This document shows, piece after piece, positions 3,506-22,456 of a stretch of DNA of 64,000 nucleotides. The notes under the pieces were generated by a model that worked only from the letters and a program-made list of their open reading frames with translations, was not told the origin of the DNA and made no database searches. The translations under genes and the position numbers were made by a program. The first letter of the stretch is position 1. Every line of letters starts with the position of its first letter. The DNA comes from Candidatus Amoebophilus asiaticus 5a2 (GTDB lineage Bacteria > Bacteroidota > Bacteroidia > Cytophagales > Amoebophilaceae). The stretch covers positions 1,468,001-1,532,000 of the forward strand of contig NC_010830.1 in the NCBI RefSeq assembly GCF_000020565.1, in the 5' to 3' direction.

Positions 3506-4525
3506 TTAATTATACCTTGAATAATTTTTAAAGTTAGGGGCCATTTGTGCAGGTATCTTACCTTCCTTATTTTTAAGGCTTAATTTAGCACCTCTATCCC
3601 TTAATGCGGCAGTTATTGACCAATAACCTTTTTTAGTTGCTAAATGCAATGGTGTGTTACCATGATTGTCTTGTATATTCACATCTATCTCACTCTCCTG
3701 TAAAAGTCGTGTAACCTTTTCACCATCACCCTTAAGTACTGCTAAATGAAGGGGCGTATGACCCTTATTATCTCTCAAATTTAGCTGAAAGTCCTTTCTA
3801 ACTAATAACGCATCTAAGATTGCTATATCTCCCCAGTCAATCGCTAAGTGTAAAGGACTCTGGTCTTCTATATCTTGTATATTGATATCAAGAGCCAAAC
3901 AGCTTAGTAGTCGTTTGATGGTCTTTACATTACCCCGTGAAGTAGCCAAGTGCAAAACAGTAGAGCCGCTATTATTGACAGAATTTACATCAACTTCTTC
4001 TCGTAACAATAGTATTTCAACCATATTAAAACAGCCTTTTAAAACTGCTGAATGTAAAGGAGTATTACCTTGTGCATCACGCAAATTTATATTAATATGA
4101 TCTTGATTGATTAATAATTGAAAAACCGCTTCATTTTTCTGAAAAACTGCATAGTGTAAAGGAGAAAATCTATTTTGAGCAAGTGTACTAATATTAATTT
4201 GATGGTATAGTAAAGCTTGTATTATAGGCAGGTGGCCTAAAGATATGGCTTGCTGCAAAGCATCAGAATAAAGTTGTACTATATCCGTACTATTTGAGTT
4301 TTTAACAGCATGCATTGAGTCATCTTGAAGTAACTGGAGCGCTCTCAATAATGTAGATCTTCTTGTATCGCTAGCCAACTGTATCATTTCTGCTGTAATA
4401 GGGGTAGATAGAATTACCTTTTCATCTACATTTCTTTTATGCTTGCCATCACAATGAGAAAATGTAGCTAACACCATCAATAATCCTATCATATTATTAA
4501 TATGCTTAATAAATCTTTGCAGCAT
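3506..4525 (-). CDS. Secreted ankyrin-repeat protein (about 6 repeats)
   Basis: A 339-residue protein. It has a short basic N-terminus, a hydrophobic segment (residues about 10-22) and a cysteine after FSH, so a Sec signal or a weak lipobox is likely. Residues about 45-110 form a non-repeat helical domain. About six ankyrin repeats follow, each with TPLHLA-type cores (TPLHSAVLKG, TVLHLATSRG, TPLHLAVLKG, TPLHLATKKG), and a degenerate cap. Both ends closely resemble the 811-residue ANK protein immediately upstream on the same strand (starts MLQRFIKHIN and MLQKLIKHIN), so the two are paralogs differing mainly in repeat number. Ankyrin repeats mediate protein-protein contacts. A role toward the eukaryotic host is inferred from lifestyle and the export signal only. 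Confidence 0.88.
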   Translation of the reverse strand: MLQRFIKHINNMIGLLMVLATFSHCDGKHKRNVDEKVILSTPITAEMIQLASDTRRSTLLRALQLLQDDSMHAVKNSNSTDIVQLYSDALQQAISLGHLPIIQALLYHQINISTLAQNRFSPLHYAVFQKNEAVFQLLINQDHININLRDAQGNTPLHSAVLKGCFNMVEILLLREEVDVNSVNNSGSTVLHLATSRGNVKTIKRLLSCLALDINIQDIEDQSPLHLAIDWGDIAILDALLVRKDFQLNLRDNKGHTPLHLAVLKGDGEKVTRLLQESEIDVNIQDNHGNTPLHLATKKGYWSITAALRDRGAKLSLKNKEGKIPAQMAPNFKNYSRYN

Positions 4526-5061: not shown

Positions 5062-7497
5062 CTATAACAATTTACTATACTCTTTTGCCACTTGTAGAGG
5101 CATTTTACGGCTTTTATTCTTAAGAGTAAGTTTAGCACCGTTAGCCCTTAACTTTGAAGCTATGTGCCAATATCCATTAATAACTGCTAAATGCAACGGT
5201 GTATTACCTTCATCATCCTGTGCATCTACATCGGCTCCTGTTCGCAAAATTTCTTCAACTGCTGAATCATGACCACTAACCACAGCTAAATGGAGAGGTG
5301 TTTGACCATCATCGTTACCAAGGTTGAGTTTAGCACCTTTAACTCTTAATGCAGAGATTATACAAGCATACCCTGCATCAGCTGCCCAATGTAATGGCGT
5401 ATTACCCACTTCATCCCGAACATTTGTATCAGCCTCTGCCAGCAAAAGCATCTTAACTACTTGATGATGCCCTTTTAAAACTGCCAAGTGAAGGGGCGTA
5501 TGTCCATAATTATTGACTAGATTCAAATTAGCACCTTTACCTATTAACTCAACAACTATGTCCTCATAACCTTTACTAGCCGCTAAATGCAATGGTGTAT
5601 TGCCTTTAAAGTCTTGTAAATCAATATTTAATTCGGGTGCTGAGTGCAAGAACGTTTTTACTATCTGATGATGATCCTTAAGTACTGCCAAATGTAGTGG
5701 TGTACGGCCATCTTTATTGAGCAGCTCTAGGTTAGCACCTATGCCACCTAACTGCAAAATCACTTTCATATACCCTCTTCTAGCAGCTAAATGCAATAAC
5801 GTATTGCCAGTATTATCTTGCGTATCTATATGTATTTTTTTATCTCTTGCCTGGAAAAATTTCTTAACTAGTTGATAATGGCCATTGAGTAATGCCAGAT
5901 GCAAAAAGGTATAACCATTTTTATTTACAAAAGTTGTGTTAACACCTGCCTCTATCAATTCCAGAACTATTTTCCAGAACCCTCCACTGGCAGCTAAATG
6001 CAATGGTGTATTACCTTTATTATCTTTAAAGTTTGCAAACTTTAAAGATCCTGCCCTTATAAGTTCTTTAAAAACTTCATAATGACCATTAAATACTGAC
6101 AAATGTAGTGGAATATGTCCATTTTTATTCGGAATGTCTATTCTCGCTCCCATAAGGATTAGATCGGCAACTATACTGGGATATCCTTTACTAACAGCTA
6201 TATGTAACGGTGTATTACCCTCTTTATCTTGTGCATTTGCTGTTATGTTTAATTCTGGTAAAAGCACTCTAGCTACTTCATAATTTTCATTAAGTATTGC
6301 CAAATGAAAGGGTGTATGCCCCTGTTTATTACATAAGTTTATATCAGTACCTCTTGTTCTTAATTCCATAACTATGTCCATATCTCCTTTTTTTGTCGCC
6401 AAATGCAAAGGAGTATTTCCTTCATTGTCACGTACGTTTACATCTATGGTTATATTCAGTTTTGGCGCTACCTGTAGCATACATTTTACTATCTTATAAT
6501 GTTTATTCAATGCAGCTAAATGAAGGGGAGTATAACCACGCTTGTTAGGTAGATCTAAGCGAGCACCCCTATTTTTCAACTCTTTAAGTATCTTAACATA
6601 CCCTCCGCTAGCAGCTACGTGTGCTGGTGTATCACCTTTATGGTCTGGCACATTAACTTCAGCTTCTTTATCTAAAAGTTTTATAAGTACGTCATAGTAA
6701 CCATTAAGCGTTGACAAATGAAGAGGAGTACAATCATTATTATCTTTAAGATTCACATTAATATCTGGCCTATCTAGTAATATATCTACCATAGGTATAC
6801 TGTACCAATCGAATGCTAAATGTAAAGCAGTACGACCATTTACAACATTCTGCATATTAACATCCGTAGCTGATTTTTCTAATAGTAATTCAGCCATCTG
6901 CAGATTATTACGTAAAGTAGCTAGTTGTAATGCAGTAAAACCAGCATTATTAACAGCATTAATATTAACTCTTTGATGTGATGTAATGGACTTGGCAATA
7001 TCAATACAGTCTTCCAAAATCGCTAAATGTAATGGTGTATTACCATCTTCATTTGCGCAATTTATATCTAGTTGACCTTGGCTTAATAAAAATTGGCAAA
7101 GGACTAAATCTTTCCATACAATCGACCAATGTAATGCTGTGTATTTACTACAATCAGCCACATTAATATCAATGCCATTTGATATGAGGGCATGTACGAT
7201 TGGTAAGTTTTTTATTATCAAAGCTTGGTATAACACAGAAGCATAAAAATGTCTTACATCAGCACCATGAGAATCCATAACAATAGCCATTCGGTCATGC
7301 TGTAAACTTTGAAGTATATCGGCTAACAGAATTTGATTTTTATCTGTAGCTAATTGTACCATTTGCTGAGTAATAGGAATAGGTGTAGGAACAATCCGTG
7401 TGGTAGCAGTATTTTCCTTATGATGGCATCGCGTATAGGCAGCTAACACTAGGACAAGCGTTATTACATTAATATGTTTGATTAGTTTTTGTAGCAT
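5062..7497 (-). CDS. Large secreted ankyrin-repeat protein (about 20 repeats)
   Basis: An 811-residue protein. The N-terminus MLQKLIKHIN is followed by a hydrophobic stretch and a cysteine (YTRC), as in the neighbouring 339-residue paralog, so export or lipid anchoring is likely. A non-repeat domain of about 110 residues leads into some 20 ankyrin repeats that fill the rest, ending in a partial repeat (MPLQVAKEYSKLL). From about residue 260 the repeats alternate between two types. One has cores such as TPLHLAVLKGHHQVVKMLL followed by a D-x-x-GNTPLH turn. The other has cores such as AASKGYEDIVVELIGKGAN followed by a N-x-x-GHTPLH turn. The unit of amplification therefore appears to be a pair of about 66 residues. 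Function is probably protein binding, with a host target inferred from the family in amoebal symbionts. Confidence 0.9.
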   Translation of the reverse strand: MLQKLIKHINVITLVLVLAAYTRCHHKENTATTRIVPTPIPITQQMVQLATDKNQILLADILQSLQHDRMAIVMDSHGADVRHFYASVLYQALIIKNLPIVHALISNGIDINVADCSKYTALHWSIVWKDLVLCQFLLSQGQLDINCANEDGNTPLHLAILEDCIDIAKSITSHQRVNINAVNNAGFTALQLATLRNNLQMAELLLEKSATDVNMQNVVNGRTALHLAFDWYSIPMVDILLDRPDINVNLKDNNDCTPLHLSTLNGYYDVLIKLLDKEAEVNVPDHKGDTPAHVAASGGYVKILKELKNRGARLDLPNKRGYTPLHLAALNKHYKIVKCMLQVAPKLNITIDVNVRDNEGNTPLHLATKKGDMDIVMELRTRGTDINLCNKQGHTPFHLAILNENYEVARVLLPELNITANAQDKEGNTPLHIAVSKGYPSIVADLILMGARIDIPNKNGHIPLHLSVFNGHYEVFKELIRAGSLKFANFKDNKGNTPLHLAASGGFWKIVLELIEAGVNTTFVNKNGYTFLHLALLNGHYQLVKKFFQARDKKIHIDTQDNTGNTLLHLAARRGYMKVILQLGGIGANLELLNKDGRTPLHLAVLKDHHQIVKTFLHSAPELNIDLQDFKGNTPLHLAASKGYEDIVVELIGKGANLNLVNNYGHTPLHLAVLKGHHQVVKMLLLAEADTNVRDEVGNTPLHWAADAGYACIISALRVKGAKLNLGNDDGQTPLHLAVVSGHDSAVEEILRTGADVDAQDDEGNTPLHLAVINGYWHIASKLRANGAKLTLKNKSRKMPLQVAKEYSKLL

Positions 7498-11956: not shown

Positions 11957-12136
11957 AGACCCGCTGCGAAACAGAAGATCGATAAAAACATTAGATTTTT
12001 GAGAGTTAAATTTATTATTTATAAAAATTCAACCTGCGTTTTTTATACTTTAAACGTCTATTCTTATTTTTTATATTTTCTGAATTGTGCAAAATGCTCC
12101 TCTGTTTTTTTACGGCAGTTGTTTCGCAGCGGGTCT
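11957..12136. mobile_element. 180-bp MITE sharing ends with the local IS5/ISL2-type element
   Basis: A 180-bp non-coding unit with perfect 17-bp inverted ends (AGACCCGCTGCGAAACA). A second copy, in the opposite orientation, spans 42323-44680 and is split by two IS. The ends match the terminal repeat of the IS5-type elements at 40432 and 52003 (AGACCTACTGCGAAAGAGG) closely enough for mobilisation in trans by that transposase. Flanks here are AGT on the left and AAT on the right, near to the A-N-T target duplication seen at the related elements but not a perfect match. It may be old. Confidence 0.8.
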
Positions 12137-13533
12137 AATGTATTTAGAGGTATGCAAGAAGACTGGGGCTGTTGAAAAAGTATATGTTAAAAATATTTTA
12201 TTAAGCATGTTAAGAAAATAAAGAAAGACATAAAAAAGCTGCTTAATTATTCTTTTAATATTTTGTACAACAGCTACCATATATGCTTGTATTTGCACTC
12301 TTTCCAACCTCCTATAACGAGCTTTACCTAACCCATGTAACTGCTTAGCTTCAGCGAAAATACCTTCTATTTTCCACATCCTTTCTTTAAGCTTACCAAT
12401 CAATGCCGACTCTTGCATAGCTTCAAAAGTCTTATCAAACAACTCTTGATGTATGCTTCTAATAAGATATTTTGTGAATGGCCTGCTTTTCTTAGCTGAA
12501 GCAATACAAGCATCTTTTTGCTTGCATATAGCACAAATGGATGATTTTGACCTGTAATATTTACTCTCCCCATTCAGAAAGCCATAAGGGTTCAAATACT
12601 GGTCTTCAGGATATATAAAGCGATCCTGTTCTTTTTGATAGACAAACCCAGCGCTGTAAGCTTCCTGTATGGTCCTACCACTCTTAGTACTAAAGAGTGG
12701 TATATAGCTTACTATAACTTCTTTCTGTAAAGTCTCTATTATCTCTCTTGAACCGTAACCCCTGTCTGCTACAACTTCTTTTATGTTTAGCTTGTGCTTT
12801 TGAATAATATACTTGATTCTCTCTATATATACACCATATACACCACATTCGTGGGTCTTGCCCGTTGTAACCTTTGTATCAATTATTACTCTGCTTGTTG
12901 CATCAATAGAGTTGTGAACTTTATATTTCAACTCCCGAGGACTGCCTTCCTTTTGAGCCAGGCTTACGTCTTTATCTGTTTTACTAATATGAGTGCTGTT
13001 GCTTATACTCCTACTGACAGGAGGTCCAAGTTTATTTATAGCAGCTTTTCTTGCTGCTTTCTCATCAACTGCTGCTTTAGCTTCGATAGGAGTTAATGAA
13101 TTTAGTGATGCATTAGCTTTAATTAATGTGCTATCTGTCATCATAATATTAGACCCCAATAAGCCATGCTTTCGACACAAATTCAGTATAGTAGTAAAGA
13201 GCGCTTCAAATATTCTTTCACCAAATCTGTTTCTTGTTTTACTTAAGTAAGAGTGATCAGGCACCTTGTCTTCTAACTCAAGCTTACAAAACCACCTATA
13301 AGCCACATTGTAGCGTACTTCCTGACATAACCTTCTATCAGAAAATAGCTAATCAGCAGCATCCTAAAGAAAATCTCTGGGTCTATCGAGGGACGCACAT
13401 ACTTGCTATTATAAGAGGATATAACTAACTGATGGGTAAAGGAGAGATCTATATACTTATTAATCTTGGAAAGCAAGTGATTATCATCTACTGGGCTCCT
13501 GCTATAATTAGTATTTTTGTTCTGCCATAACAT
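12110..13533 (-). pseudogene. IS1182-type transposase, frameshifted by a 13-bp deletion
   Basis: Two reading frames encode the halves of one transposase. The N-terminal part (13533 down to about 13330, starting MLWQNKNTNYS) matches the intact copies up to RMLLISYF. A 13-bp deletion (the codons for YNINS) then shifts the frame. The C-terminal part continues to the element end with the DDE region (MMTDSTLIKANAS, VVADRGYGSRE, KERMWKIEGIFAEAK) and the CAICKQKDAC cysteine pair. As in the intact copies, the frame has no stop inside the element. It runs through the terminal repeat and ends only at 12110, inside the neighbouring MITE. Confidence 0.88.
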
Positions 13534-13820: not shown

Positions 13821-16800
13821 GTGAAGAAGAATCATAATTTTGTCCAGCTATTTAGGCGCTGTATTTTTCTAGCAAGTTTCATCTTTCAAAGCTGTTCTAA
13901 ACTACAAAACCCTATTATTCCTGGTAAGAAAAAACAAATACCTATAACTCAACAAGTAAGCAAGCCAGAAAGAGTACCATCAAATTTAAGCAAGAAAATT
14001 ACCAATCACCCAGATCTAGATTGCTTTTATAATAGCCTTGAGAAGGGAACAGACATGATTATTTCAGCAGCTCATTTTGCAGAAATATCAGCAGTTAGAC
14101 AAGCAGGCAAATCCGCTCCCATTCAAGAACTCCCATCGAGCAATCTTAACAATTACCTTTCTATTTCTACCAGGCATAACCAGCGTTATCCTATAAAATA
14201 CCAGTCAAAGCAGCCTACTACTAAGACCAGGACAACTAAACAGGACATAGTAGCTAAGAAGCAGCAACATAGCCAATTGAGAGTAACAAAGCTAAAGCAG
14301 GCATTATTAGAAAAAGAAATTATAACCAAAGATAGATATCAACTTAGATTTTACAAAGAGCTAGGTCTATGGAAAGCAGAAGTAATAGAAAATTATGGTA
14401 GCTTGAGTAGAACACATCATCTGCCCGTTTATATAGCAGCAGGTACAGATCTACTACAAGTAGCCAGCTCGAATGAATTACAACAAACTAGGCTTATCCA
14501 TGTAAATTTACCTAAGAATAAACAGCCTGGTTATGTGTACATAGGCAGTGTGGGATTAAAAGGAGGAGGTAAAACTAAGGCTAACAGTATATCTAAGGTT
14601 ATCAGTACGCCCGCTATACCTGGTTATAAATTGCATACTTCTTTACATATAGGGACTTTTTCGAGCATTTATCGTGCAATATGCCTTGCAGATAATCATC
14701 CAGTCGTAATTAAAGTCAGCGCCCAAAAAGTGATAACTGAGAAAAAAGCCCAACGCTTTCTTCGTGAGTTTGAATTGGGCCAGCAGGTCCATTCGCCCTA
14801 TGTGGTTCGCTATTTGGAACTCAAGCAAGATCCGGCTTATGGTATAGCAGTAGTCATGGAAGATGACCAGGCCGTAGAGTTGAGTACTATCGTTCCACGA
14901 GAAGGTTTTTCTAACCGTGATTTTATAGAAATCGCGCTTCAAATTGTTCAAGGCTTACAGGCCATTCATGATGCCAACATCATTCATAATGATCTTAAAC
15001 CTAGCAATATCGTTATTGAGCCAACAACAAAAGCTATCAAAATCACTGACTTTAACTGTGCTTCTACCTTACGAGAAGAAAAGAGAACAGCTATGCCTAG
15101 GCGGACAGGTACCTTGGCCTATATTTCACCTGAGCAAACAGGGCGGGTTAACCGTAGTGTTGATTACCGTACGGATTTTTATTCATTAGGTATTACCTTT
15201 TATCAGTTGCTCTGTGGCGAACCACCCTTTACAGCAAAAGATGCACTGGGACTCATTCATCAGCACTTAGCCAAACAGCCCATACCCCCTCACCACCGTA
15301 AACCCACGATTGCGCTACCCTTATCCCAGATGGTGATGAAATTACTGGATAAAGAAGCGGAGAACCGGTATCAAAGTTGTGAAGGGATTCTACATGATTT
15401 AAGATTCTGCCTGCCAAACTTAAAAGAGACTGGCACCATTCCTGAGTTTGTGCTAGGTCAACAGGATTTTTCCAATAAACTCACCTTATCCCAACAATTA
15501 TACGGCCGAGAAAGCGAAATCAAGACCTTACTAGATGCTTTTGAACGTGTCAGGGAGGGGAAGCGGGAAGGGTTGATGGTCACCGGCCAACCCGGGGTAG
15601 GTAAGACGATCCTGATCCAGGAGATCCAAAAGCCGATTGCCTTAAAGCAAGGATATTTTATAACCGGTAAATTCGATCAGTTAAATAAAAATGTAGCATA
15701 TAGTGCCTTGACCCAGGCCTTTAACAGCCTCATCCAGCAATGGCTAAGCGAAGACGAAATCCGTATTACCCAATGGAAGACTCGGCTGCTGGTGACATTA
15801 GGGGCACAGGCGCCATTCCTTACCAAGGTCATTCCTGCCTTAGCCTTACTGATCGGGGAACAACCAGATACATCCATTACCGACATTAATCAGGCCAAGA
15901 ATGTATTTAACTGGATTTTCCAGGAGTTTATTAAGATTTGTGCCACCACGTCCCATCCCTTAGTGATTTTCTTAGATGACTTACAGTGGGCCGATCAAGC
16001 TAGTTTAGAGTTGATGACCTATTTACTGCAACAACCTAACATCGGCCATCTGCTGTGGATAGGTGCTTATCGGGACACTGAAATCACCCCTTCCCATCCA
16101 GCTTTACAGGCTATCACTACCTTACAAGAAGCACAGATCACCATCCAAAAACTCCCGCTTGCACCATTGTCACTGGCCAGTTTGTATCAGTGGATTGCCG
16201 ATAGTTTACATAAACCCTTAATAGACATTCAGCCACTAGTTGAACTGATTTTTCAAAAAACAGCCGGGAACCCCTTTTTTGTGAAATTATTTTTACAATC
16301 GCTATATGACCAGCGGTTGTTAACCTTTTCTCCGCAAACCCACTGGAAATGGGAGCTTGCTAAAATCTACCAGCATCCGGCAACTGAGAATGTCATTACC
16401 CTGATGACTTACCAAATTCGCCAGCTGCCTGTGACTACCCAAAAAGCATTAAGTGTAGCCAGCTGTATAAGTCATCGTCTGGCATTAAGTACCTTGCAAA
16501 CGGCAATGGCTTGTTCACATGAAGAGGTGGAGAAGACCTTACAACCGGCCCTAAATAGTGGCATTTTGATTCAGGTCGACCATGAAGTATACTTTGCCCA
16601 TGACCGGGTGCAAGAGGCAGCCTATCATTTAATAGCAGAAGAAGAAAGAGCCCATACGCATTTAACGATTGGACAACGATTACTAGCCAACCCTACTAGT
16701 GAAGAGACTTTGCTATTGGATATTGTTGCCCAGTTTAATCGCAGCCGCTTGCTCGTCACTGAGCCTAAAGAGCGCTTGCGGATTGCACGCTTAAACCTAA

Positions 16801-19800
16801 AAGCAGCGCAAAAAGCCAAAAAAGCCACGGCTTATACATCAGCGTTAGATTACCTATATGTCAGTCGGGACTGGATTGACATAGAAACACTCTGGAAAAC
16901 CGATTATCCACTGGCCTTTACCTTCCATAAAGAATTAGCCGAAATAGAATATTTAAGCGGTCATTTTGAGACTTCAGAAGTTCTAATAAAAGACATGCAG
17001 CCTTGGTTGCAATCCAATTTGGATAAAGTCGATATTTTTCGTTTACTGATCATTCAAAAGACATTTCAAGTCCATTATCACGAGGCCATTACCATTGGTC
17101 AGCAAGCATTACAATTACTGGGTAGTAGTTTACCTTTAGATAATTTAACAGAATTCCTCCAGCGTGAAATGCCCTTGCTTAGGCAAAGGCTGGCTGGTAT
17201 ATCATTTTCTTCTCTACTCGATGCGCCACTCGTTGTTAAGCCTGAGAAGCAAGCTCTCTTTAAAATTTTAGAAAGCCTCTATAGCGCGGCTTACTTAACT
17301 GGATCAGAGCTATATCCTGCTATTGCGCTGATATCAATCAATCTGTCGTTAAACTATGGACACACGCCCGAATCTTGCCATAGTTATGCAGCATATGGAC
17401 ACTTGCTTTGTGCTAGGTTTGAAGAATATGCCTTAGGCTATCAATTTGGCAACTTAGCCCTTCAGCTGGCAGAAAAACTTCAATTACCTGTCCAACACTG
17501 TCAAAGTTCAATGATTATGTTAGGTTTTATTTACCCCTGGTCAAAGTCTATTCAACAGTTACCAGCTTTATTGGCGGCTGCTTATAAATCATGTCTAGCT
17601 TGCGGTGAACTCGAATTTGCCGGTTACTGTGCGAATCTAACAGCCCAAACCCTACCTTATCTAGGTATCTCCTTAGCCAAGGTTCAACAAGAAGTGTTGC
17701 CGTTACTGCAATTTGCACAAAACACGAAAAATCAAATGACAGCTAATATCATTCAATCTGTACAGAGGGTGTTAGCTAATTTAAGGGGTGATACACCAGA
17801 TGAATGGAATTTTGATACTGACACTATTGATGAAGCCAAATTTGAAGAAGGTTGCCAACAAACAAACAGCTTTTTTGCCTTATGCTTTTACTATATTTTC
17901 AAAGCTCAGACTTTTTATCTGTATGACGACTTTAAACAAGCACTCGACAATTTAGCATTAGCAAAGAAACATTTAATTGTTATTACTGGTCACTATATCA
18001 CAGCAATTTTTAATTGGTATCATTCTTTAATTTATTTAGCACTCTATCCAACGGCTTCTATTGAAGATCAGCAAGCTTATCTCGAGCAAGTAATCCAAAA
18101 TCAGCAACAGATGCAACGCTGGCAGGCCAGTTGTCCAGAGAATTTTGCTCATAAGTACCTTTTAGTTGAAGCCGAATTGGCGCGACTTAAAGGCCACTAT
18201 GAACAGGCTGAAGAATATTATGACCAGGTTATCGAGTTAGCAGGGCAGCATGGTTTCATTCAAGAACAAGCGTTGGCAGCCAAGCTGGCTGCTAAATATT
18301 GGCTAGCCAGAGGCAGATCTGTATGTGCACAAAGTTACCTGTATATCACCTTTAATGGCTATAAACAGTGGGGAGCTAAGCATAAATTAATGCGATTTAA
18401 AGCGCAATATGCAGATTTATTAAAAGCTTTAACCCCACCTGGCTTAAGTCAGTTAGTGGTCAACCAGGAAACCACGCTCAATGGCAATACCTTACAGTAT
18501 TTAGACCTATCCAGTATTTTAAAAGCTTCCTATGCAATTTCCAGTGAGATCGAACTGACCAAGCTCCTGCGTAGCATGATGCAAATTATTATTGAAAATG
18601 CCGGGGCTCAGCAAGGCGCAGTATTATTTGTTGAAGCAGACGACACTATTTTTGTACAAGCAGAATATGCGATCGATGGTACGATCACTACCCTACAGAA
18701 AATACCACTCGCCGACTGGGCCAATGGTGCGCACACGGTCATTCAGTATGTCAAAAGAATGCAACAACCGATCGTGGTGGACCATGCCACGACGCATGAA
18801 CAATTTAAGACTGACCTATATATCAACCGAACGCAAGCAAAATCCATTTTATGTGTCCCGCTCCTCAAGCATAAGGAGCTTCAAGCCATCTTGTATGTAG
18901 AAAACAACCTGATGACCCATGCCTTTATGCCCGAGCAGGTACAAACAGTGCTAATTTTAACAGCTCAAATGGAGATTTCCTTAGAAAATGCCCGTTATGT
19001 TGCCAGGCAACTTGTACTAACTCAGCAATTAGCCGAGCAATCTGCTCGTAGGCTAATAGCTGAGGAATCGTTGCATGCGGTAACCCATGATTTAAAACTG
19101 GCATTAGAAGCCTCCCAAGCGGGTACATGGAATTGGTGGATTGACACGGATAAGGTCACGTGGGATACAACCAATTGTGCGTTGTTTGGTTTAACACCCG
19201 ATACATTTAAAGGTACGTATGCAGCAGTTGTGGAATGTGTGCATCCTGAAGATCGAGAGCGACTTAATCAGTGTGTTAAGCGTTGCCTTGAGCAAGATAT
19301 CCCGTATGATATGGAATATCGGGTGATTTGGCCAGATGGCAGCCAGCATGTAATTGTAGCACATGGCCATGTTTACCGGGATAAAGATGGTAAGCCAATT
19401 AAAATGGTAGGTGTATGTTTAGACATAACACAGCACAAACAGCTAGAGCAAGAATGGCTTGAGGCCCTCGAGCAAGCAGAAGAAGCACAACGTCAACGCG
19501 CAGATGAGGCTGAACGTCACAGCGAAGAACAGAGATGGTTTATTGATACGGTTTGCCATGAAATTCGCAATCCTATGAGTGGTATTTCTAATACAGTAAG
19601 TTTTATGGAAGAAAAGCTAGCTTCACTCAAAGCATACAAGAAAAGCTTACCTAAGCCGGCGTTAGAAGAGCTTGTGCAAACGCTGGAAGAGGATATAAAA
19701 ACCATTAAGCATTGTGTCAATCATCAGATAGCAGTTATTAACGGTGTGCTTAGTTTGTCAAGATTAGAAGCAGGCAAAGAGGAGCTAATTTTTGAACCGT

Positions 19801-20732
19801 TTAAACCCAAGGCAATCATTAAAGACATTATTACTCTCTTTACGCCTCAATTAAAGACCAAGCAGCTTGACTTAATTGTAGACTTGCCTGAACAGGCGAT
19901 TGCCATCAAGGGAGATCCTGAACGTTTCAAAATAGTTTTAATTAACTTAATTTCCAATGCCATTAAGTTTACTGAAAAAGGGTATATAAAAGTCAGCTTA
20001 CAAATCCAGTCAGTTGATTCAAGCCACGTGCAAGTAGCTATCTGCGTAGAAGATACGGGTACTGGTATGACACCTGAAGAGCAATCGCGTTTATTTCAGC
20101 AGTTTTCACGACCCCTTTCTTCTCAATATGAAGGTTCTGGTTTAGGGCTTGCCATTAGCAAAAAATTACTTGATTTGATGGGTGGTACTATTCAAGTGGA
20201 TAGTGTAAAAGGACAAGGTTCTGTGTTTGCCATCCATTTAACTTGTGAGATAGTGGGTATAGAAGAAAAAATAAGCCCGTTGATTAATCGAAAAACACCT
20301 TCTACTTTACCTCTCTTACCCCCTGTAGCCAAGCATATTCTCGTGGTCGAAGATAATATAGTGAATCAAAAAATTCTACGTAGGCAATTAGAAGCGGCAG
20401 GCTACACATGTACGGTAGCTGACAACGGACAAAAAGCAATCGAAGCTATCGGAGCACTCGAGGAAGTTGAAATGCCCGAACAATGGAATCTGACAGCATT
20501 CGATCTCATTTTGATGGATTTAGAAATGCCTGTGATGGGTGGTATAGAAGCGACTGGATGGATTCGTAAAAAAGAAAAGCAATTAGGCGTACCTTCCATA
20601 CCTATTATTGGCTTATCAGCTTATGCAGAAGAAGTTTATGGCGAAAAAGCTAAGCAGGCTGGCATGAATAATTATCTAACTAAACCTTACAAGCGAGAAG
20701 AAATGTTTAAAGCTATCCAAGCATATCGTTAA
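13821..20732 (+). CDS. Giant hybrid Ser/Thr kinase-ATPase-histidine kinase with lipoprotein-like N-terminus
   Basis: A 2303-residue multidomain sensor starting at GTG. Order: a basic, hydrophobic leader ending in IFQSC (Cys25, lipobox-like); a linker to about 265; a Ser/Thr kinase at 270-535 with a glycine loop, VVIKVS (Lys298), HNDLKPSN (Asp391), and DFN in place of DFG; an AAA-type ATPase from about 560 with GQPGVGKT (Lys595) and VIFLDDLQWAD; a long helical, TPR-like region to about 1540; GAF at about 1570-1725; PAS at about 1755-1880; HisKA with CHEIRNPMSG (His1913); HATPase with NLISNAIKFTEKG and GSGLGLAISKK; and a receiver with HILVVEDN and MDLEMPVMGG (Asp2233). The kinase-ATPase-GAF-histidine-kinase arrangement is a known large family. 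The export-type start on it is odd. The core from about 14.75 kb is visibly richer in G+C than the first 800 bp, suggesting transfer and fusion. No cognate partner gene is nearby. Confidence 0.92.
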   Translation: MKKNHNFVQLFRRCIFLASFIFQSCSKLQNPIIPGKKKQIPITQQVSKPERVPSNLSKKITNHPDLDCFYNSLEKGTDMIISAAHFAEISAVRQAGKSAPIQELPSSNLNNYLSISTRHNQRYPIKYQSKQPTTKTRTTKQDIVAKKQQHSQLRVTKLKQALLEKEIITKDRYQLRFYKELGLWKAEVIENYGSLSRTHHLPVYIAAGTDLLQVASSNELQQTRLIHVNLPKNKQPGYVYIGSVGLKGGGKTKANSISKVISTPAIPGYKLHTSLHIGTFSSIYRAICLADNHPVVIKVSAQKVITEKKAQRFLREFELGQQVHSPYVVRYLELKQDPAYGIAVVMEDDQAVELSTIVPREGFSNRDFIEIALQIVQGLQAIHDANIIHNDLKPSNIVIEPTTKAIKITDFNCASTLREEKRTAMPRRTGTLAYISPEQTGRVNRSVDYRTDFYSLGITFYQLLCGEPPFTAKDALGLIHQHLAKQPIPPHHRKPTIALPLSQMVMKLLDKEAENRYQSCEGILHDLRFCLPNLKETGTIPEFVLGQQDFSNKLTLSQQLYGRESEIKTLLDAFERVREGKREGLMVTGQPGVGKTILIQEIQKPIALKQGYFITGKFDQLNKNVAYSALTQAFNSLIQQWLSEDEIRITQWKTRLLVTLGAQAPFLTKVIPALALLIGEQPDTSITDINQAKNVFNWIFQEFIKICATTSHPLVIFLDDLQWADQASLELMTYLLQQPNIGHLLWIGAYRDTEITPSHPALQAITTLQEAQITIQKLPLAPLSLASLYQWIADSLHKPLIDIQPLVELIFQKTAGNPFFVKLFLQSLYDQRLLTFSPQTHWKWELAKIYQHPATENVITLMTYQIRQLPVTTQKALSVASCISHRLALSTLQTAMACSHEEVEKTLQPALNSGILIQVDHEVYFAHDRVQEAAYHLIAEEERAHTHLTIGQRLLANPTSEETLLLDIVAQFNRSRLLVTEPKERLRIARLNLKAAQKAKKATAYTSALDYLYVSRDWIDIETLWKTDYPLAFTFHKELAEIEYLSGHFETSEVLIKDMQPWLQSNLDKVDIFRLLIIQKTFQVHYHEAITIGQQALQLLGSSLPLDNLTEFLQREMPLLRQRLAGISFSSLLDAPLVVKPEKQALFKILESLYSAAYLTGSELYPAIALISINLSLNYGHTPESCHSYAAYGHLLCARFEEYALGYQFGNLALQLAEKLQLPVQHCQSSMIMLGFIYPWSKSIQQLPALLAAAYKSCLACGELEFAGYCANLTAQTLPYLGISLAKVQQEVLPLLQFAQNTKNQMTANIIQSVQRVLANLRGDTPDEWNFDTDTIDEAKFEEGCQQTNSFFALCFYYIFKAQTFYLYDDFKQALDNLALAKKHLIVITGHYITAIFNWYHSLIYLALYPTASIEDQQAYLEQVIQNQQQMQRWQASCPENFAHKYLLVEAELARLKGHYEQAEEYYDQVIELAGQHGFIQEQALAAKLAAKYWLARGRSVCAQSYLYITFNGYKQWGAKHKLMRFKAQYADLLKALTPPGLSQLVVNQETTLNGNTLQYLDLSSILKASYAISSEIELTKLLRSMMQIIIENAGAQQGAVLFVEADDTIFVQAEYAIDGTITTLQKIPLADWANGAHTVIQYVKRMQQPIVVDHATTHEQFKTDLYINRTQAKSILCVPLLKHKELQAILYVENNLMTHAFMPEQVQTVLILTAQMEISLENARYVARQLVLTQQLAEQSARRLIAEESLHAVTHDLKLALEASQAGTWNWWIDTDKVTWDTTNCALFGLTPDTFKGTYAAVVECVHPEDRERLNQCVKRCLEQDIPYDMEYRVIWPDGSQHVIVAHGHVYRDKDGKPIKMVGVCLDITQHKQLEQEWLEALEQAEEAQRQRADEAERHSEEQRWFIDTVCHEIRNPMSGISNTVSFMEEKLASLKAYKKSLPKPALEELVQTLEEDIKTIKHCVNHQIAVINGVLSLSRLEAGKEELIFEPFKPKAIIKDIITLFTPQLKTKQLDLIVDLPEQAIAIKGDPERFKIVLINLISNAIKFTEKGYIKVSLQIQSVDSSHVQVAICVEDTGTGMTPEEQSRLFQQFSRPLSSQYEGSGLGLAISKKLLDLMGGTIQVDSVKGQGSVFAIHLTCEIVGIEEKISPLINRKTPSTLPLLPPVAKHILVVEDNIVNQKILRRQLEAAGYTCTVADNGQKAIEAIGALEEVEMPEQWNLTAFDLILMDLEMPVMGGIEATGWIRKKEKQLGVPSIPIIGLSAYAEEVYGEKAKQAGMNNYLTKPYKREEMFKAIQAYR

Positions 20733-21534
20733 TTTAGTGCTTAGCCAAAAGCAAAGCTATTGCTAAATAATTAACAAAAAGTTTAACAACAACTTAAAAG
20801 GCTATAAAGTAGATCTTACATATGTATGCCATAAGTTTGATTTGATTAAAAATGATACTACAATGTGGCATTAGAGTTCTTCCGAAACTTAACATAAAAG
20901 TTCATAGTTATAAATTCCAGCAATAAGATTAAAGCGTAGCCCAAATCTTTTTCTCCTATTTCTGTAACGCTCCGCTAAAATTTTAAACCGCTTGAGCATA
21001 CCAATTATATGCTCGCTAAGCACCCTTTGGCTGGCTAATTGCTGATTACTCCTCTTATCGGCTTTGGTCAAAGAATGCTTTTTACTGCGTTTTTTAGGCA
21101 TAAGCGATTTGTCATGTAGCCTCTTTAACCCTTGATAGCCTGTATCTACTATGGCTTGACTATGCTGGCTTATATGTACCTTAGATTCCTTAAACAAGCG
21201 AAAGTCATGCCGCTTTCCATTTGAAAAACTACTACATATTATGGCTCGCGTTTGCTTATCGACAACCAGTTGCGTCTTTAGTGTATGTCGTTTCTTTTTA
21301 CCTGAGTAGTAATATCGCTGCTTTTTTTAGGCCGCTCAATGGGGCTCTCTGTAGCATCTATTAAGATTACTGCATATTCCATATCGCTTTTTAACAATGC
21401 TTTACGGCCTGGTAAAGTGAATTGACCACTTTTAATTAACGCCTCTTCAATAAAACGGATGGTATAATAGCAATTACTCTCACTTATTCCATAACTTTTT
21501 GAAATATGGAAGTATGTGCGGTATTCTCTTAAAT

Positions 21535-22456
21535 AACCTAAGTTGCTAGTAATAGATAAGGCAAAGAGTAAAAAACCTCCGATCTTGTTTTTGTCTTAAA
21601 CCAATAAATCGGAGGTCATTATGATTGAAAAATCAATAGCAATATACTCATTTATTGATACTTTACTCAAGTATTTACATCATCAAGAAGATAAAAAAAG
21701 GAAGTTGTCGGATGCAGAAGTACTCACAACAGCTATCATCTCAGCCTTATACTTTGGCGGACATCTTGACAAAGCTCGATCGTTTATGCATTCCACTAAG
21801 CTTATCCCTAACATGCTCGATAAAAGTAGGTACAATCGCCGCTTGCATGCTATAGGAGAAGAGATAACTTCACTCTTTTTAGGAATAGGCACTTTAATCA
21901 AGCAAGTAGCCACTTGTAAGGACTTTGTATTAGATTCATTTCCTGTGCCTGTGTGCGATAACATACGTATTAGCAGATGTAAACTATTACAAAGTGAAGC
22001 TTACAGAGGCTACAAAGCCTCTATGCGCCGTTACTTTTATGGCATTAAAGTGCAGCTTATTACTACTGATTGTGGTATTCCGGTCGAATTCTCAATAGTA
22101 GCTGGCAGCCAAGCGGATGTAAAAGGATTGCACCAACTGCCCTTTTCTATGCCTGCTGGTAGTGCACTTTATGCTGACTCGGCTTATACTAACTACCATC
22201 TAGAAGATATGTTGGCTGATGATAGGATTAAGCTTTATTCTCAGCGTAAATCTAATGCTCATCGAAAGGATACGCCTTCTCTGGCTTATCTCAAAGAGCG
22301 CATGCGAAAAGTGATAGAGACCAGCATTAGTGGCATTAAAGGCCTTTTCTTAAGGAAGATTCATGCTGTTACCTTCCAAGGCTTTCTGATCAAAATACTC
22401 TTGTTCTTGCTAGCTTTTCAAATCAACAAAGCTTTTCTTAACTAGCAACTTAGGTT
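21535..22456 (+). mobile_element. IS982-family element, apparently intact
   Basis: A 922-bp element with 16-bp inverted ends (AACCTAAGTTGCTAGT and its complement) and one full transposase gene. It sits inside the IS5-family transposase gene, opposite to it. I could not read a clean target duplication (left flank CTTAAAT, right flank ATATATT). A decayed relative lies at 11222-11840. Confidence 0.9.
21621..22445 (+). CDS. IS982-family transposase
   Basis: A 274-residue DDE transposase. The start is well supported by a strong Shine-Dalgarno (CGGAGG, 8 bp before the ATG). Catalytic acidic residues are visible in FVLDSFPVPVCD, LYADSAYTNYH and VIETSISGIKGL. The N-terminal third is the alpha-helical IS982 domain (SDAEVLTTAIISALYFGG). 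The C-terminus is hydrophobic, as is typical. It is full length for the family and has no visible defect, so the element may be active. Confidence 0.93.
   Translation: MIEKSIAIYSFIDTLLKYLHHQEDKKRKLSDAEVLTTAIISALYFGGHLDKARSFMHSTKLIPNMLDKSRYNRRLHAIGEEITSLFLGIGTLIKQVATCKDFVLDSFPVPVCDNIRISRCKLLQSEAYRGYKASMRRYFYGIKVQLITTDCGIPVEFSIVAGSQADVKGLHQLPFSMPAGSALYADSAYTNYHLEDMLADDRIKLYSQRKSNAHRKDTPSLAYLKERMRKVIETSISGIKGLFLRKIHAVTFQGFLIKILLFLLAFQINKAFLN

What the first reader, a model, noticed from the sequence alone, without database searches (positions are those of the whole stretch)
13821..20732. Sensor kinase of 2303 residues with a lipoprotein-type leader and a G+C step
A cytoplasmic-type signalling array (Ser/Thr kinase, AAA ATPase, GAF, PAS, histidine kinase, receiver) is fused behind a leader ending IFQSC. 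Exporting ATP-dependent domains makes little sense unless they act in the host or the leader is non-functional. The first 800 bp are AT-rich like the neighbours, while from about 14.75 kb the G+C content rises (for example around 15541-15600). This suggests a transferred kinase fused to a resident exported-protein start. The kinase has DFN in place of DFG.
Basis: partly seen in the sequence, partly recalled or inferred. Interest (0 to 1): 0.72.

Follow-up and report, generated by a model that had tools for sequence, protein, structure and literature searches.

The report
Surface-anchored hybrid kinase in amoeba symbiont
A bacterium that lives inside amoebae has apparently acquired a large signalling enzyme from an unrelated bacterium and fused it to the leader it uses for dozens of other predicted host-directed surface proteins, so the enzyme probably sits on the bacterial surface facing the host's cytosol.

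Summary
ORF 13821-20732 (GTG, 2303 aa) has a lipoprotein leader (FQS|C26), then Ser/Thr kinase, AAA_16, GAF, PAS, HisKA/HATPase and receiver domains. The G+C step is real: the best GC3 change point falls at about 14,715. The leader is neither accidental nor non-functional. With a ~90-aa domain (residues ~162-251) it forms a module found in 76 ORFs of this genome, at least 64 with a lipobox leader; other carriers bear U-box, F-box, ankyrin, Sel1, GIMAP and Tox-ODYAM1 parts. This matches the 'Amoebophilus prodomain' APD1 (Zhang et al. 2012), proposed to anchor host-directed effectors on the symbiont surface. Two paralogs here and one ortholog in Ca. Amoebophilus sp. 36-38 share leader and GC step. 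All homologs from other bacteria start at the kinase core with no leader. The nearest (45% identity, full length) is in a Dot/Icm-bearing gammaproteobacterium; trees place the Amoebophilus kinases with it, away from Bacteroidota homologs. Catalytic motifs are intact and selection is purifying (dN/dS ~0.16). DFN occurs in all four Amoebophilus copies. The symbiont reportedly lies free in host cytosol, which would supply ATP. Best reading: a transferred soluble dual kinase turned into an APD1-type surface effector. Surface display and activity are untested.

The parts
13821..13895 (+). Lipoprotein (SPII-type) signal peptide, residues 1-25, ending FQS
   Evidence: sequence; aligned leaders of paralogs and sister species; lipobox in 64 of 76 APD ORFs by rule
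13896..13925 (+). Lipidation Cys26 and following SKLQNPIIP (post-Cys N-P-hydrophobic-P element shared by many APD proteins)
   Evidence: N.?P within +17 of the Cys in 48 of 64 APD leaders, no acidic pair in +1..+6 in any
14304..14573 (+). Amoebophilus prodomain (APD1-type) domain, residues ~162-251
   Evidence: HMM match E 1.8e-33; 79 matches of the family in this genome
14628..15386 (+). Ser/Thr protein kinase domain; K298, D391, D410-F411-N412
   Evidence: Pfam Pkinase E 2e-43; motif alignment
14715..14715 (.). Best GC3 change point (codon 302 of the open frame), about 90-110 bp inside the kinase module
   Evidence: likelihood change-point scan, permutation P 0.0018
15495..16061 (+). AAA_16/STAND-type ATPase (P-loop GQPGVGKT)
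   Evidence: Pfam AAA_16 E 6.7e-39
16062..18554 (+). Long middle region without a Pfam match, conserved in the dual-kinase family
   Evidence: full-length alignments
18555..18983 (+). GAF domain
   Evidence: Pfam E 2.8e-9
19155..19415 (+). PAS_3 domain
   Evidence: Pfam E 9e-23
19539..20243 (+). Histidine kinase core (HisKA with H1913, HATPase_c)
   Evidence: Pfam; intact H, N, G1 and G2 boxes
20337..20720 (+). Receiver domain, phospho-acceptor D2233
   Evidence: Pfam E 3.1e-23; motif DLILMDLEMPVMGG

Best explanation
This is an APD1-type lipoprotein of Candidatus Amoebophilus asiaticus whose cargo is a complete Ser/Thr-His dual kinase. A soluble dual kinase (HstK-like kinase-AAA-GAF-PAS-HK-receiver) came by horizontal transfer from a lineage near a Dot/Icm-bearing gammaproteobacterium, was joined behind the resident leader and APD module before the kinase duplicated, and has since been kept under purifying selection in three copies. 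The leader sends it through Sec; lipidation on Cys26 anchors it in the outer membrane, most likely facing the host cytosol where the symbiont lies. There it uses host ATP and signals sensed by the AAA/GAF/PAS parts to phosphorylate host proteins and/or pass phosphate through its own receiver. Shown by computation: leader, APD module, fusion boundary, transfer signal, intact motifs, selection. Inferred: lipidation, surface exposure, catalysis, host targets.
For: Leader and APD domain shared by 76 ORFs, at least 64 with a lipobox. Other carriers have host-directed parts: Sel1 18, ankyrin 13, U-box 7, F-box 3, AIG1 3, Tox-ODYAM1 3 of 63; Tox-ODYAM1 is listed with APD1 in PMC3482391, whose authors propose surface anchoring. 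Same leader in both paralogs and in the sister species. All non-Amoebophilus homologs begin at the kinase core. Full-length 45% relative in G343, joined to Amoebophilus at 98*-100*. GC3 break. dN/dS 0.15-0.18 for the kinase part. Catalytic motifs intact. Host-cytosol location (PMC8831229).
Against: No protein-level data on localisation or activity. The post-Cys sequence lacks the acidic lipoprotein export signal known from other Bacteroidota (PMC5080379), so surface exposure, as opposed to the inner leaflet of the outer membrane, is not shown. The sister species' copy ends after GAF, so the HK-receiver half is dispensable there or that copy is decaying.
Confidence: 0.6

Rival explanations
1. 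The lipoprotein is anchored on the periplasmic side and acts on, or is scaffolded to, the bacterium's own envelope; kinase activity is vestigial because the periplasm lacks ATP.
For: No known acidic lipoprotein export signal after the Cys in any of 64 leaders (PMC5080379).
Against: All catalytic motifs are intact in three paralogs and dN/dS is 0.1-0.25 in the kinase, HK and RR domains; the other APD cargo parts are of kinds that make sense only in a eukaryotic cytosol.
Confidence: 0.17
2. The N-terminus does not export the protein; it is an uncleaved membrane anchor or is bypassed by an internal start, and the kinase works in the bacterial cytoplasm like its relatives.
For: All relatives outside the genus are leaderless, presumably cytoplasmic proteins; the window gene starts with GTG.
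Against: Lys-rich N-terminus before the hydrophobic stretch predicts N-in/C-out; the lipobox leader is conserved across paralogs and species and shared with dozens of host-directed proteins; no Met between residue 79 and the core in the window protein and none near the core in the sister species.
Confidence: 0.13
3. The kinase module was inherited vertically within Bacteroidota; the GC difference comes only from protein composition.
For: The family is common in Cytophagales.
Against: The step is at third codon positions; trees join Amoebophilus to G343 at 98*-100*, and Amoebophilus with core Bacteroidota as one clade is rejected (p-AU 7e-50; the core set is not itself a clade, which inflates this value).
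Confidence: 0.07

Closest known systems
APD1/APD2 effectors of Amoebophilus asiaticus (Zhang et al. 2012, PMC3482391)
   Same: Signal peptide with lipobox, then a lineage-specific ~90-aa domain, then a variable C-terminus; Tox-ODYAM1 cargo linked to APD1 is among our carriers
   Different: The paper's main text names no kinase cargo ('protein kinase' and 'histidine kinase' have 0 occurrences); our count is 76 ORFs, and the domain also occurs in sister genera
Dual Ser/Thr-His kinases HstK / cbSTKIII (cyanobacteria, PMC2176072) and their relatives in Proteobacteria, Bacteroidota and Planctomycetes
   Same: N-terminal Ser/Thr kinase, AAA_16 and GAF, often PAS and histidine kinase; homologous over the whole core at 30-45% identity
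   Different: The members compared here start at the kinase core with no leader; DFN in place of DFG; here the module is fused to a lipoprotein leader and APD domain
MafB-N and Microscilla-N toxins (anchored N-terminus with variable cargo)
   Same: Same principle of a constant anchoring N-terminus with polymorphic cargo
   Different: No sequence relation tested; no immunity genes looked for; cargo here is a signalling enzyme

Membership tests
APD1-type surface effector family of Amoebophilus | Signal peptide with lipobox at the N-terminus | tested here: met
   FQS|C26, aligned with LQS|C of the paralogs; shared by at least 64 of 76 ORFs
APD1-type surface effector family of Amoebophilus | Shared N-terminal domain after the lipobox | tested here: met
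   HMM E 1.8e-33. Equation with APD1 rests on co-occurrence with Tox-ODYAM1; the paper's alignment file could not be read
APD1-type surface effector family of Amoebophilus | Polymorphic C-terminal cargo across members | tested here: met
APD1-type surface effector family of Amoebophilus | Surface anchoring | not testable with these tools
   proposed in PMC3482391, no experiment
Dual Ser/Thr-His kinase (HstK/cbSTKIII) family | N-terminal Ser/Thr kinase and C-terminal His kinase with GAF between | tested here: met
   Pfam
Dual Ser/Thr-His kinase (HstK/cbSTKIII) family | Sequence homology over the core to cyanobacterial members | tested here: met
   33-39% identity to Nostoc, Gloeothece and Leptolyngbya proteins
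Dual Ser/Thr-His kinase (HstK/cbSTKIII) family | Both kinase activities | not testable with these tools
   motifs intact apart from DFN
Bacteroidota LES-type surface lipoprotein | Acidic export signal K-(D/E)2 or S-D-D within +2..+6 of the Cys | tested here: not met
   no acidic pair in +1..+6 in any of 64 leaders; C-S-K-L-Q-N-P in this protein

The most novel reading that the evidence does not exclude
A bacterial His-Asp and Ser/Thr hybrid kinase acts as a host-directed effector: displayed on the symbiont surface, it phosphorylates host proteins or feeds the host's own histidine-kinase phosphorelay (Acanthamoeba encodes 48 sensor histidine kinases, PMC4053784). The same module may be used by a Dot/Icm-bearing amoeba-type gammaproteobacterium with a different delivery route, so that delivery signals were swapped during transfer.
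Probability: 0.25. Interest if true: 0.8.

Novelty: new variant of a known kind. Interest (0 to 1): 0.52.

Why it matters
Two-component kinases are normally bacterial self-regulators. Here a complete one carries the same leader and prodomain as dozens of predicted host-directed proteins of an endosymbiont that lies free in host cytosol. If displayed and active, it would be an unusual case of bacterial phosphorelay aimed at a eukaryote, and it shows how a resident export module can recruit a foreign cytoplasmic enzyme in one fusion. The post-Cys NPxIP-like element, shared across the family and unlike the acidic export signals of other Bacteroidota, is a testable candidate surface-sorting signal.

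Tried and rejected
NCBIfam gave no model for the N-terminal 262 residues. The fold of the APD domain (pLDDT 81.6) gave no convincing PDB match (best Foldseek E 0.19, best VIA Z 4.1 over 65 residues with an unrelated topoisomerase), so its biochemical role stays unknown. G343 has no TLC ATP/ADP carrier but has DotI/IcmL; no APD was found in it. A first phylum-wide search failed at the machine. A strict lipobox regex undercounted leaders because of Arg in the hydrophobic stretch and was replaced. DFN as a sign of a dead kinase was rejected: K298, D391, D410 and the SPE motif are intact, and free-living relatives also vary at the third position of DFG.

Full report
WHERE IT IS. The window is C1:1468001-1532000 of a single-contig genome of 1,884,364 bases. 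The same-genus genome G001 holds, on a contig of the same length and at the same place, the record MKUM01000094.1 'Candidatus Amoebophilus sp. 36-38'. The size matches the 1.88-Mb A. asiaticus genome (PMC3196728), so I take the window to be Ca. Amoebophilus asiaticus 5a2; the tools did not name it.

OBSERVATION. The GTG start lines up with the ATG of both paralogs. Third-position G+C is 0.296 in the N-terminal part and 0.385 in the rest; a shuffle of codons reaches this step in 0.18% of trials, and the best change point lies at about nt 14,715. The same step is in the paralogs at C1:696935-703840 and C1:1298400-1305227 and, more weakly, in the sister species (0.327/0.391). In 55 APD ORFs with leaders there is no step on average, and the three kinases have the highest C-part GC3 of 66.

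WHAT THE N-TERMINUS IS. Searching the genome with the whole protein showed that residues ~159-255 recur in dozens of proteins. A profile finds 79 matches in this genome, in 76 ORFs; 64 of them have a lipobox leader by rule, and about five more by eye (e.g. QLLTITSC). Leaders are strikingly alike (LLxSLxLQS|C). Most continue with an N-P element (N.?P in 48 of 64, P-hydrophobic-P in 28 of 64), which only 1 of 21 other lipoprotein-like ORFs in the sample shows in a similar form (rough regex, small sample). C-terminal parts of 63 carriers hold Sel1, ankyrin, U-box, GIMAP/AIG1, LRR, F-box and Tox-ODYAM1 domains. Outside this genus it occurs in several Amoebophilaceae, and in none of 36 genomes from other families of the order. 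Zhang et al. 2012 described just this arrangement as Amoebophilus prodomains APD1 and APD2 and proposed surface anchoring of host-directed effectors. The kinase cargo is not mentioned in that text; its supplement was not readable. So the family is known and the cargo appears to be new.

WHAT THE CARGO IS AND WHERE IT CAME FROM. The kinase module belongs to the dual Ser/Thr-His kinase family known from cyanobacteria (HstK, cbSTKIII; PMC2176072) and found here in Bacteroidota, Thioploca, other Gammaproteobacteria, rhizobia, Paraburkholderia and Uabimicrobium. All of these begin at or close to the kinase core. The nearest full-length relative, 45% over residues 3-2039 of the module, is in gammaproteobacterium G343; it has no leader, has DFG, lies in a genome with DotI/IcmL genes, and its genome shows no APD. 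In trees of kinase plus AAA and of the whole core, the four Amoebophilus sequences form one clade (100*), joined by G343a (98*, 99*) and then G343b (100*). All four Amoebophilus copies carry the leader, so the fusion most likely preceded the duplications. Transfer from the gammaproteobacterial side fits the nesting and the higher G+C (about 44% at the G343 locus). The donor species is not identified.

FUNCTION. Lys298, Asp391, Asp410, SPE, P-loop, H1913, the N and G boxes and D2233 are intact in the window protein, and the same motifs in both paralogs. dN/dS over the kinase part is 0.15-0.18 in the pairs compared, and APD and leader are also below 1 (dS near 1, so rough). DFN is in all four Amoebophilus copies; relatives mostly show DFG, but also DFS, DFD, DFT and DFE. 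The sister-species copy stops after GAF. The export paradox is answered by biology: the symbiont is reported to lie directly in host cytosol without a host membrane (PMC8831229), where ATP is at hand, and the host genus has 48 sensor histidine kinases (A. castellanii, PMC4053784). I therefore favour a surface lipoprotein that signals to the host. Lipidation, topology and activity are inference.

LIMITS. No wet data; the leader lacks the acidic signal known for surface lipoproteins in other Bacteroidota (PMC5080379); the AU test used a Bacteroidota set that is not itself a clade; the original genome paper was not in the library.

Noticed in passing
window 12110-13306 (-), 20889-21197 (-), 21621-22445 (+): The kinase gene is flanked on both sides by transposase genes or remnants of different DDE types.
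   Followed up: partly
window 5062-7497 (-): 811-aa ankyrin-repeat protein near the kinase; not an APD carrier by the profile.
   Followed up: no
L033:2036-6601 (C1:785535-790100): An APD gene is split by an in-frame TGA within the APD domain; likely a broken gene.
   Followed up: no
L026:1762-8422 (C1:1458261-1464921): A short ORF with a lipobox leader overlaps a long ORF that has an APD domain but no leader, suggesting a frameshift between leader and cargo.
   Followed up: no
L034:1892-5143 and L035:1683-4934: Two 1084-aa APD ORFs that look identical in length, leader and domain, 12 kb apart: a recent duplication.
   Followed up: no
L066:1030-5991 (Ca. Amoebophilus sp. 36-38): Ortholog of the kinase keeps leader and kinase-AAA-GAF but ends before PAS-HK-receiver.
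   Followed up: partly
L031:3936-10841: Paralog 2 carries two APD-type domains in tandem (residues 59-145 and 164-247 of the open frame), and paralog 3 a weak second one.
   Followed up: partly
L129 (G343), 3788-4483: The contig carrying the second G343 kinase copy also holds a leucine-rich-repeat-like protein, in keeping with a host-associated gammaproteobacterium.
   Followed up: no
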